DNA of 36,999 bases from Candidatus Latescibacterota bacterium. GTDB taxonomy: Bacteria > Latescibacterota > UBA2968. The notes beneath the pieces are model-generated. The model made no database searches, was not told where the DNA came from, and was given only the letters and a program-made list of their open reading frames with translations. This document shows, piece by piece, positions 34,972-36,940 of this stretch (position 1 is its first letter; each line of letters opens with the position of its first letter). Location of the stretch: contig JAGWBW010000028.1 in assembly GCA_021295695.1 (NCBI GenBank), forward strand, positions 1 through 36,999. The letters are read 5' to 3'. The position numbers were made by a program, and so were the translations under genes.

Positions 34972-35199
34972 TCAGGAAGTATCGCGGTGTTTTTTGACAT
35001 AGTTCATCCAAAAATGATGACGCTGAGCATATGGGTCAGCGATGCAATGGGCACAAACGTGCTCGATCTTGTCGAACAAGGTGCGGTCTTCAAGAGCTGC
35101 ACGACGCAACTCAGCCCAATCGTCCCAGCGACCACGACGAATCACATCGTCTATAGCGGCGAGAGTAAAACGTTGATGGTTTAAATGACGGTGCTGCAC
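34972..35199 (-). CDS. Small conserved-looking protein of unknown function
   Basis: This 75-residue basic protein has several His residues. A helical L-A-A-I-D-D-V-I-R-R-G-x-W-D-D-W segment is followed by D-P-Y-A-Q-R-H-H-F-W near the C-terminus. The GTG start has AGGAG 6 nt upstream, which supports real translation. I have an impression of similar short proteins in other bacterial genomes but cannot name a family. Position beside TA genes suggests an accessory or TA-related role; it could also be the orphan partner of a lost gene. Confidence 0.65.
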   Translation of the reverse strand: MQHRHLNHQRFTLAAIDDVIRRGRWDDWAELRRAALEDRTLFDKIEHVCAHCIADPYAQRHHFWMNYVKKHRDTS

Positions 35200-35231
35200 G
35201 GCTCACTCCTCTTACTTCCCTATGCTACTTA

Positions 35232-35723
35232 TTACCAATCTTCTCCAACGACCTGCTTTAGCACGGCTCGGACGAATTGATCGTCGAGATATAGACCTGC
35301 ATAACGCAACTCTCGGATAATTTTAGATGCTGATGTAACCAGTCCCTGTCTTTTCGCACGAAGTACAACCCCTAATGTCCCGATGACGGGGACACCTAAT
35401 GAGCGGGCACAGGTCCGAGCAGTGGCGTCATCTACAATAGCCGTCCAGCCAGCTTTTTCCAAAGCGACGGAAAGCACCTCGGTCTCCCCTGCCCCCAGAC
35501 TCCAGCCCAAGACTTCGGGATGGATACGAGATCTACCCAATCTTTTGCCCCATCCACTTTCCAAGGCAAGACGCCCAGGATCATCCTCTGGACCCGCCGT
35601 GATTTCTCCAAAAACTGCCTGTGGAATACCTATATCGGGTGCCACTCTTACAATCAGGTCCAGATGACCAGTTTTTGCAAGGGTAATGATCGGCGAGGCA
35701 TTGAGTACCCACCCCTCACTCAC
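35232..35723 (-). CDS. DUF3368/PIN-like toxin of a UPF0175-DUF3368 pair
   Basis: This 163-residue protein opens with V-L-N-A-S-P-I-I-T-L-A-K-x-G, the DUF3368 form of the PIN-domain start, with Asn where the first acidic residue D usually stands. The acidic positions G-E-T-E (about 81) and V-D-D-A (about 98-101) follow, as in PIN nucleases. DUF3368 proteins are predicted RNases acting as toxins with UPF0175 antitoxins, exactly the order seen here. It overlaps the antitoxin gene by 8 nt. The D-to-N change could lower activity, though N-A-S-P variants may be common in the family. Confidence 0.82.
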   Translation of the reverse strand: MSEGWVLNASPIITLAKTGHLDLIVRVAPDIGIPQAVFGEITAGPEDDPGRLALESGWGKRLGRSRIHPEVLGWSLGAGETEVLSVALEKAGWTAIVDDATARTCARSLGVPVIGTLGVVLRAKRQGLVTSASKIIRELRYAGLYLDDQFVRAVLKQVVGEDW

Positions 35724-35967
35724 GGTTTACTTCCTCTGCTATTTCGTCCACGCTGTATTGGAATACTGAAACCTCAAACCGGCCTAATGCCTCAATGAAC
35801 TCACTGCGGGATAGCCCCGCAATCTCAGCCGCCCGACTTTGGGAAACCTCTCCCATTTCGTACCATTTCACAGCGGCAGCCAAACGCAATTCCTGGGTAA
35901 AATGATCGGGGCCTTTCCGCACCGATGAAAGCACATCTTCTGGTAGTTCAAAAGTGACCGTTACCAT
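35716..35967 (-). CDS. UPF0175 family antitoxin
   Basis: This 83-residue protein has a short beta-strand start (V-T-V-T-F-E-L-P-E-D-V) and a helical core E-L-R-L-A-A-A-V-K-W-Y-E-M-G-E-V-S-Q. A predicted helix-turn-helix A-A-E-I-A-G-L-S-R-S-E-F-I-E-A-L-G follows, matching UPF0175 antitoxins. The family is thought to bind both its promoter and the PIN-like toxin. I set the start at ATG 35967 with GGGAGAA upstream rather than the longer frame from 35985. The 8-nt overlap with the toxin indicates translational coupling. Confidence 0.85.
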   Translation of the reverse strand: MVTVTFELPEDVLSSVRKGPDHFTQELRLAAAVKWYEMGEVSQSRAAEIAGLSRSEFIEALGRFEVSVFQYSVDEIAEEVNRE

Positions 35968-36034
35968 AGTATTCTCCCTGATCAATCAAGCTATCCAAAC
36001 ATTTCCGATTTGTTTTTTTCGGCTGAATAGAAGA

Positions 36035-36210
36035 TAGCGTAAGTGTATTTTGCCATCATTAGATTGGAAAAGTTTTAGAAGAACAGCCCAAAGCATAATA
36101 TCCAAATTCCTTGCAAAGATCAAGTATGTGATATTTTGATTCTGGAAGAAGATAGGTTATATTTTGAAGGAGAGAATGCTTGTAACGTGGACCTAATTGA
36201 TTACCACTAA
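36035..36210 (+). pseudogene. higB: Decayed higB toxin remnant
   Basis: The last 15 codons before the TAA at 36208-36210 read F-E-G-E-N-A-C-N-V-D-L-I-D-Y-H, the characteristic C-terminus of HigB/RelE-type toxins (ending D-Y-H). They lie in the position HigB should hold upstream of higA. Further upstream the same frame contains stops and only faint resemblance (L-E-K-F, N-I-Q), so most of the toxin has been deleted or mutated. The left boundary is approximate. The rest of 35968-36160 shows no other gene. Confidence 0.55.
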
Positions 36211-36370
36211 GAAGCTGTTTTAAAATTAATACCTGATGTTACGCATGTCAGGCGTTTTGTCATGCTGAGCGTAGCCGAAGCATCTTCGACTCCGCTGCGC
36301 TCCGCTCAGAATGACAGGACAATAACGCATAGCTGAGAAGGGGCAAAATGAGTTTTAAAACAGTTTCTAA
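36208..36370. mobile_element. MITE (157 bp) with TAA target duplication between higB and higA
   Basis: The element body 36211-36367 starts GAAGCTGTTTTAAAATTAAT and its other end, read inverted, is GAAACTGTTTTAAAACTCAT: 17 of 20 positions match. It is flanked by TAA on both sides (36208-36210 and 36368-36370), a 3-bp target duplication. The interior holds a strong imperfect hairpin: TGTCATGCTGAGCG pairs with CGCTCAGAATGACA. It encodes no protein, so it must be moved by a transposase elsewhere. A 3-bp TNA-type duplication would suit IS5-family relatives, which is inference. Confidence 0.8.
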
Positions 36371-36379
36371 GGAGAAAAA

Positions 36380-36679
36380 ATGCCGATGAAGAATCCACCC
36401 CATCCGGGGCTGTCAGTACGTTACGATTGCCTGGAGCCACTCGGGCTGAGTGTGACTGTAGCCGCGCAAAAACTCGGCGTTGATCACAAGGGACTATCGG
36501 ATATCGTAGATGGCCGGGCAGGCATCTCGCCTGAGATGGCGATTCGCCTGGACAAAGCCTTCGGCGGAGGCGCAATCACCTGGTACCGAATGCAGGCGGC
36601 CTACGACTTGGCACAGGCCATGCAGAAGGCCGATGAGATTCAGGTTGATCGCGTTGTAATCACTACACCATCCGACTGA
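36380..36679 (+). CDS. higA: HigA-type antitoxin
   Basis: This 99-residue protein matches the HigA addiction-module antitoxin family. It opens P-P-H-P-G, has a helix-turn-helix (V-A-A-Q-K-L-G-V-D, then [24 protein letters not shown]), and the conserved [11 protein letters not shown] follows. HigA binds its own promoter and neutralises HigB. GGAG (36371-36374) lies directly after the MITE's TAA duplication. The toxin gene is only a remnant, so this is an orphan antitoxin whose native promoter upstream of higB is separated from it by the element. Confidence 0.88.
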
Positions 36680-36748
36680 TTGATATCTATCCCACCGCAT
36701 CCTGTATCCCCTTCAAAAATAAAACCTGGCAACAACCAATAAAATAAA

Positions 36749-36928
36749 CGTGATGTGTGACTTCAAAACCGCCATATAGTAATACCGATAAATAGATATA
36801 AGAAAGTCAAAACCACTGGATTGCGGCTAACACCCTGCCGCAATGACAGATCTAAAATCCTTGTTTTTCTGACTGCTGACCACTGATTGCTTGTTTTCTT
36901 CACCATTATTTCAAAGTCACACATGACG
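36749..36928. repeat. Candidate 180-bp inverted-repeat element
   Basis: CGTGATGTGTGACTTCAA (36749-36766) and, read inverted, CGTCATGTGTGACTTTGA (36928-36911) match at 15 of 18 positions. Between them lie a copy of the dispersed palindromic repeat and no open frame. A target duplication is not clear, so whether it moves as a unit is uncertain. The segment 36680-36999 holds no gene. Confidence 0.5.
36816..36849 (+). repeat. Dispersed palindromic repeat, copy 2
   Basis: The + strand reads CTGGATTGCGGCTAACACCC followed by TGCCGCAATGACAG. It corresponds, with about four substitutions, to the minus strand of 26296-26328. The substitutions at the inner stem positions (C to T, G to A) are compensatory, preserving pairing. 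Confidence 0.65.
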
Positions 36929-36940
36929 TAAAATAACTTG

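What the first reader, a model, noticed from the sequence alone, without database searches (positions are those of the whole stretch)
36035..36679. MITE inserted exactly at the higB stop codon, separating a dead toxin from an intact antitoxin
The HigB C-terminal signature ends in TAA at 36208-36210. A 157-bp inverted-repeat element follows and ends in a second TAA, immediately followed by the higA ribosome binding site and ATG. Removing the element leaves stop-GGAG-ATG, the normal compact higBA junction, so the ancestral state can be read directly. Insertion kept both reading frames but split the operon. The toxin is decayed while HigA is intact. The element may now supply the leader or promoter for a solitary antitoxin.
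Basis: partly seen in the sequence, partly recalled or inferred. Interest (0 to 1): 0.8.

Follow-up and report, generated by a model that had tools for sequence, protein, structure and literature searches.

The report
Mobile repeat landed before orphan antitoxin
A short mobile DNA repeat landed exactly on the stop codon of a mostly deleted bacterial toxin gene and duplicated that stop codon, next to an intact antitoxin gene; its kin sit on stop codons more often than a background count predicts.

Summary
A 157-bp repeat (36211-36367) lies between two TAA copies, the first being the stop of a higB remnant. It is multi-copy in the same genome; a congeneric genome (G004) has a 928-bp insertion sequence with the same ends and a TAA duplication. 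The syntenic site of a sister species (G007) is uninterrupted: intact higB, TAA, GGAG, higA. The predicted ancestral junction exists.

The interpretation changes in two ways. (1) HigB did not slowly decay: a 238-bp internal deletion removed its start and 77-78 of 92 codons, leaving promoter, last 14-15 codons and stop. A relative (G001) has the same join twice without the repeat, so toxin loss need not involve the insertion. (2) The old promoter remains; for a repeat-borne promoter there is only a weak consensus match, and predicted exposure of the higA ribosome site is unchanged.

Extra: 6 of 16 complete copies examined in this genome (7 with this one) and 10 of 46 in G008 sit on stop codons, against about 1% of all target-like sites and 7% of non-genic ones; a local test is weaker. 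Likely reason: target TNA includes TAA and TGA, and duplication restores the stop.

The parts
36136..36163 (+). promoter-like site of the old higBA operon (TTGATT, 16 nt, TATATT), still in place
   Evidence: 9 of 12 consensus, shuffles give 1.7 such sites per kb on average; the 40-45 nt around it are 95-100% identical upstream of higB in G005, G007 and G008
36164..36166 (+). join of the 238-bp higB deletion (short T-run shared by both sides)
   Evidence: G007 has 239 nt between TATATTT and GAAGGAGAG where the window has 1
36166..36210 (+). higB remnant: last 14 codons (15 if the ambiguous F is counted) and stop TAA
   Evidence: tblastn residues 78-92
36208..36210 (+). left target duplication TAA = higB stop codon
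36211..36367 (.). 157-bp MITE; ends GAAGCTGTTTTAAAA / GAAACTGTTTTAAAA (inverted, 14 of 15)
36368..36370 (+). right target duplication TAA
36369..36374 (+). higA ribosome-binding site AAGGAG
   Evidence: inference from sequence; exposure computed
36380..36679 (+). higA, 99 aa, solitary antitoxin
   Evidence: TIGR02607, E 1.4e-26
36748..36929 (.). second, different inverted-repeat element downstream of higA, 182 bp, 7-bp duplication AAAATAA (36741-36747 and 36930-36936); absent at the same place in G007 and G005

Best explanation
The locus is a former higBA toxin-antitoxin operon in a Latescibacterota-type genome that became a solitary-antitoxin locus. An internal deletion joined the operon's promoter to the last 14-15 codons of higB (shown by comparison with G007). 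Later or independently a non-autonomous IS5-type element, moved by a transposase acting on GARRCTGTTTTAAAA ends, inserted at the TAA stop of the remnant and duplicated TAA as its TNA target (the duplication is shown; the transposase is inferred from the related full element in G004). Because the target is itself a stop codon, both the upstream stop and the downstream ribosome site stayed intact, so higA most likely is still read from the old promoter through a leader that now holds the hairpin (inferred). The effect of the insertion is most likely close to neutral (inferred). The same logic, a TNA target that includes TAA and TGA plus restoration of the stop by duplication, probably explains why copies of this family are found on stop codons of ordinary genes more often than the background predicts.
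For: Syntenic sister locus G007:C127 with 93-96% identical flanks, intact higB and the uninterrupted junction; G005 likewise has intact higB and the junction. Same deletion join, to within one nucleotide, in two G001 copies without the element. TNA duplications in 15 of 16 (G000) and 44 of 46 (G008) complete copies; flank preference C before (45 of 62) and G after (38 of 62); the higB site CAC-TAA-GGAG fits. Full element G004:C44:29004-29931 with transposase PF01609 (3.6e-30) and PF13340 (1.2e-27), near-identical ends and a TAA duplication. Stop-codon excess over background. Ribosome-site exposure 0.54 here, 0.58 in G007.
Against: The HigA tree puts the window with intact G007 and G005 (support only 81/82), apart from the G001 remnants, so the shared deletion join needs either a recurrent deletion or recombination; the order deletion-then-insertion is therefore not proven here. 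No PF13340 transposase in G000, G008, G001 or G007, so the mover in this genome is unknown (the assembly is 93.8% complete). The element holds a weak terminator-like hairpin (36232-36252) and a weak promoter-like match straddles its left end, so neutrality is not certain. The local control for the stop-codon excess is weak, and with only in-frame TNA stops the G008 excess over non-genic sites is not significant (4 of 46; P 0.12 at the 100-aa cut).
Confidence: 0.8

Rival explanations
1. One reading: the element inserted first at the stop of an intact operon, uncoupled toxin and antitoxin, and the toxin was lost afterwards.
For: The element sits exactly between the two genes, and G007, the nearest relative in the HigA tree, has intact higB.
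Against: Same deletion join in two G001 loci without the element; HigB missing or broken without this element between the genes in G002, G008 and in the C100 locus of the same genome.
Confidence: 0.15
2. The transposase actively targets stop codons or 3' ends of genes (for example through translation- or transcription-linked DNA features), instead of copies merely being tolerated there.
For: 10 of 46 copies in G008 and 6 of 16 in G000 on stops versus about 1.3% of all and 6.7% of non-genic target-like sites (100-aa gene cut; P 4e-5 and 6e-5 against non-genic); 9 of 10 of the in-frame stop-codon genes scanned have Pfam matches.
Against: Conditioned on the neighbourhood and the target preference the excess is small (G008 10 seen, 6.3-7.5 expected, P 0.028-0.060; G000 6 seen, 3.5-4.7 expected, P 0.046-0.227). 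TNA includes two stop codons and the duplication restores them, so tolerance can explain it.
Confidence: 0.12
3. The insertion is functional: its hairpin or a hybrid promoter now controls higA, domesticating the solitary antitoxin as a regulator.
For: Strong hairpin in the leader; promoter-like match 36197-36226 formed by the higB remnant and the element end, and a terminator-like hairpin inside the element; HigA still open.
Against: Consensus matches are weak (5 promoter-like sites against 1.7 +/- 1.2 in shuffles; 3 terminator-like against 1.0 +/- 1.1). Ribosome-site exposure hardly changes. HigA's private changes are 2 replacement (E38G, E90D) and 2 silent, which does not show strong constraint.
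Confidence: 0.12

Closest known systems
IS5-type insertion sequences and their MITEs (3-bp TNA duplication; subgroup name IS1031 recalled, from no call)
   Same: Short ends, TNA duplication, a full element with PF13340+PF01609 transposase and near-identical ends in a congeneric genome
   Different: Only the ends are shared with that full element; the transposase family PF13340 was not found in the window's own genome
Bacterial MITEs such as RUP of pneumococcus and MITEAba12 of Acinetobacter (passages of PMC2229807, and of PMC6382973)
   Same: Short, non-coding, inverted ends, target duplications, mostly outside genes or at gene ends
   Different: The passages seen report premature stops or stop codons inside the element, not insertion on a stop codon with its restoration
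HigBA type II toxin-antitoxin module
   Same: HigA is a TIGR02607 member; promoter, higB tail and junction remain
   Different: HigB lacks start and 77-78 of 92 codons
Orphan (solitary) HigA antitoxins (passages of PMC12654330: HigA-1 the most abundant orphan antitoxin in one marine set, 163 of 526)
   Same: Antitoxin without a neighbouring toxin
   Different: Here the route is readable: a dated series of intact, deleted and inserted states in one genus

Membership tests
MITE | short, no transposase, terminal inverted repeats | tested here: met
   157 bp, ends 14 of 15 inverted; no ORF of 60 aa or more inside it, only mechanical ORFs of 34-89 aa overlapping
MITE | multiple dispersed copies with target duplication | tested here: met
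   16 complete copies examined in G000, 15 with equal TNA; 46 in G008, 44 equal
MITE | filled and empty sites | tested here: met
   empty site in G007 and G005
MITE | related autonomous element with the same ends | tested here: met
   G004:C44:29004-29931; none found in the own genome with PF13340
IS5 family | transposase domains of the IS4/5 type | tested here: met
   for the G004 element: PF01609 3.6e-30, PF13340 1.2e-27, PF13586 1.3e-11
IS5 family | placement in a named subgroup by ISfinder comparison | not testable with these tools
   no ISfinder copy; IS1031 is recalled
HigBA toxin-antitoxin module | intact HigB toxin (PF05015) | tested here: not met
   start and 77-78 of 92 codons deleted
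HigBA toxin-antitoxin module | HigA antitoxin | tested here: met
   TIGR02607, E 1.4e-26, cut-off 47.7, score 92.1
solitary antitoxin | no close cognate toxin in the genome | tested here: met
   8 HigB-like matches in G000, best 55% identity and it has its own HigA; assembly 93.8% complete

The most novel reading that the evidence does not exclude
A family of IS5-type MITEs uses stop codons as preferred safe sites: the TNA target includes TAA and TGA (and TTA-G/TTA-A read one base on gives TAG/TAA), the duplication or the first base of the element restores the stop, and the element becomes the 3' untranslated region of ordinary genes (glutamine synthetase, Rho factor, sulfatase and others), or the leader of the next gene in an operon.
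Probability: 0.35. Interest if true: 0.6.

Novelty: new member of a known kind. Interest (0 to 1): 0.45.

Why it matters
It gives a readable series of how one solitary antitoxin arose: intact operon, promoter-to-tail deletion, then a mobile repeat on the stop codon. It also suggests a simple, testable reason why some short mobile repeats can multiply with little damage: their target sequence contains stop codons and their target duplication rebuilds them.

Tried and rejected
Rejected: gradual point decay of HigB (one search shows one internal deletion). Rejected as unneeded: known structured RNA; Rfam gave one match below its gathering score, on the other strand inside higA. The in-genome paralogue C100 (HigA 88%) was hoped to show the empty site, but has an unrelated upstream gene and no higB. 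One-ended end-pattern hits in G000 (C143, C167) were searched for a full insertion sequence: no partner end and no transposase-like gene recognised by eye in the ORF lists. Recombination of the deletion from a G001-like locus was considered; one shared silent base and a weak tree do not decide it. A claim of proven stop-codon targeting was dropped after the local control. The target weights were derived from the same insertions that were tested, genes were mechanical ORFs, and the G008 census covers the first 100 of 177 listed places, up to 3.9 of 6.5 Mb; of 8 unpaired places there, one had a partner with one mismatch and was not counted. The six one-base-shifted stop cases of G008 were not scanned with Pfam. 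Literature: searches (20 of 36 papers listed; no paper; 2; 6; 10 of 63 listed) showed no title or abstract start on MITEs restoring stop codons or on a MITE in higBA; only passages of three papers were read; this is a limited search.

Full report
What is there. The window is contig C141 of a 5.33-Mb draft genome (415 contigs, 93.8% complete). At 36208 the sequence reads TAA, then a 157-bp element, then TAA, AAGGAG and the ATG of a 99-aa HigA. HigA is TIGR02607 at E 1.4e-26. The element has ends GAAGCTGTTTTAAAA and GAAACTGTTTTAAAA (inverted), and folds far better than shuffles.

It is a MITE. The own genome gives 44 matches (80 candidates, 40 scored), several of them partial. The end pattern with TNA is found 43 times, reversed control 0. 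Sixteen complete copies were found among the loci held: 148-209 bp long, 15 of 16 with identical TNA on both sides. In G008, 46 complete copies were examined, 44 with identical TNA. Over these 62, C precedes the target in 45 and G follows in 38. Ten of 11 genomes of the genus carry the exact end pattern. A full element was found in G004: C44:29004-29931, with a 292-aa transposase (PF01609, PF13340, PF13586), ends matching apart from one base, and TAA on both sides. PF13340 was found in 1 of the 5 genomes searched (G004), not in G000, G008, G001 or G007; it rang in 5 of 14 control genomes. So the mover in the window's own genome is not identified.

The empty site exists. G007:C127 is syntenic: window 35000-35328 and 35690-36023 match at 93%, 36368-36747 at 96%. 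G005 has the same junction with an open 92-aa HigB. G008 has the same junction, but its higB is split by an inserted element with a 633-aa ORF near the start and has one in-frame stop.

HigB was lost by deletion. Between the promoter word TATATTT and GAAGGAGAG, G007 has 239 nt and the window 1. The start and codons 1-77 or 78 of 92 are gone; the last 14-15 codons and the stop remain. Two G001 loci have the same join to within one nucleotide, without the element. G002 keeps only the start of higB, and the window genome's own C100 copy (HigA 88%) has none. Of eight genus loci with HigA at least 85% identical (window, C100, G007, G005, G002, G008, two in G001), higB is intact in two. A rough wider count over 117 HigA places (7 of them duplicates between collections): 61 intact higB, 10 long without a clean frame, 8 partial, 38 none detected; short tails such as one of the G001 copies are missed by that search, so the partial count is too low. 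In the HigA tree the window joins G007 and G005 with weak support (81/82) and not the G001 copies; so the deletion either recurred or moved by recombination. This leaves the order of deletion and insertion inferred, not shown.

What the insertion does. The old promoter-like site 36136-36163 is intact and its 40-45-nt surroundings match those upstream of higB in G005, G007 and G008 at 95-100%. The element therefore most likely lies in the higA leader. Computed exposure of the ribosome site is 0.54 with the element and 0.58 in G007. One promoter-like match straddles the higB tail and the element end (36197-36226), and one terminator-like hairpin lies in the element (36232-36252); both scans exceed their shuffle means only modestly (5 against 1.7, 3 against 1.0). 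HigA differs from G007 in 11 nt, 2 replacement and 9 silent codons; changes private to the window are 2 replacement (E38G, E90D) and 2 silent. An open frame is therefore not proof of a working antitoxin. The genome's best other HigB is 55% identical to G007's and has its own HigA.

Stop codons. Without counting the window, 6 of 16 complete copies in G000 have their TNA on the in-frame stop of an ORF of at least 150 aa; in G008 4 of 46 are in frame, and 6 more overlap a stop shifted by one base. Ten of these in-frame genes (6 in G000, 4 in G008) were scanned: 9 have Pfam matches, among them glutamine synthetase, Rho, a sulfatase and a TonB receptor. With a 100-aa gene cut, target-weighted background is 1.3% of all sites and 6.7% of non-genic ones; P against non-genic is 4e-5 (G008) and 6e-5 (G000). 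Against this: with in-frame stops only, G008 is not significant against non-genic sites (P 0.12), and a test confined to 100-200 bp around each insertion gives P 0.028-0.060 for G008 and 0.046-0.227 for G000. The cautious reading is that gene ends are tolerated places and stop codons are good TNA targets there; active targeting is not shown.

Verdict. The toxin was lost by deletion, probably independent of the insertion, and a regulatory role of the repeat is possible but unsupported. The kind is known (MITE; solitary antitoxin); the stop-codon pattern is the part worth following.

Noticed in passing
window 36748-36929: A second, different inverted-repeat element (182 bp, 7-bp duplication AAAATAA) lies 68 bp after higA; the site is empty in G007 and G005; G000 has 3 other near-full copies (83-88%) among 43 matches.
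   Followed up: partly
window 35232-35967 (minus strand) and L047 1900-2640: Neighbouring UPF0175 / DUF3368 PIN pair: in the window both frames are open, while G007, which kept HigB, lost 361 bp of the PIN gene and kept UPF0175. Sister species lost opposite toxins of two adjacent modules.
   Followed up: partly
L055, L058, L059, L060 (G041, G044, G042, G040): Upstream of HigA only the first 11 or so codons of a HigB-like frame remain, apparently running in frame into HigA.
   Followed up: no
L118, L124, L150, L164, L168, L172, L065 and others: HigB tails of varied length (the ...DYH end and stop) directly before HigA recur in unrelated phyla, as if tail and ribosome site tend to be kept when higB is deleted (read by eye).
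   Followed up: no
L045 480-800 (G000:C144): A third trace in the same genome: higBA-type promoter region and the last 26 or so codons of a HigA, the rest missing.
   Followed up: partly
window 36234-36322: Core palindromes of the element (GTCATGCTGAGC... / ...GCTCAGAATGACA) match short repeats in 29 of 100 genomes searched, including other classes and phyla, mostly without these ends.
   Followed up: no
L061 (G006:C44): A HigA of this family interrupted between residues about 31 and 21 by roughly 650 bp, with the C100-type upstream sequence.
   Followed up: no
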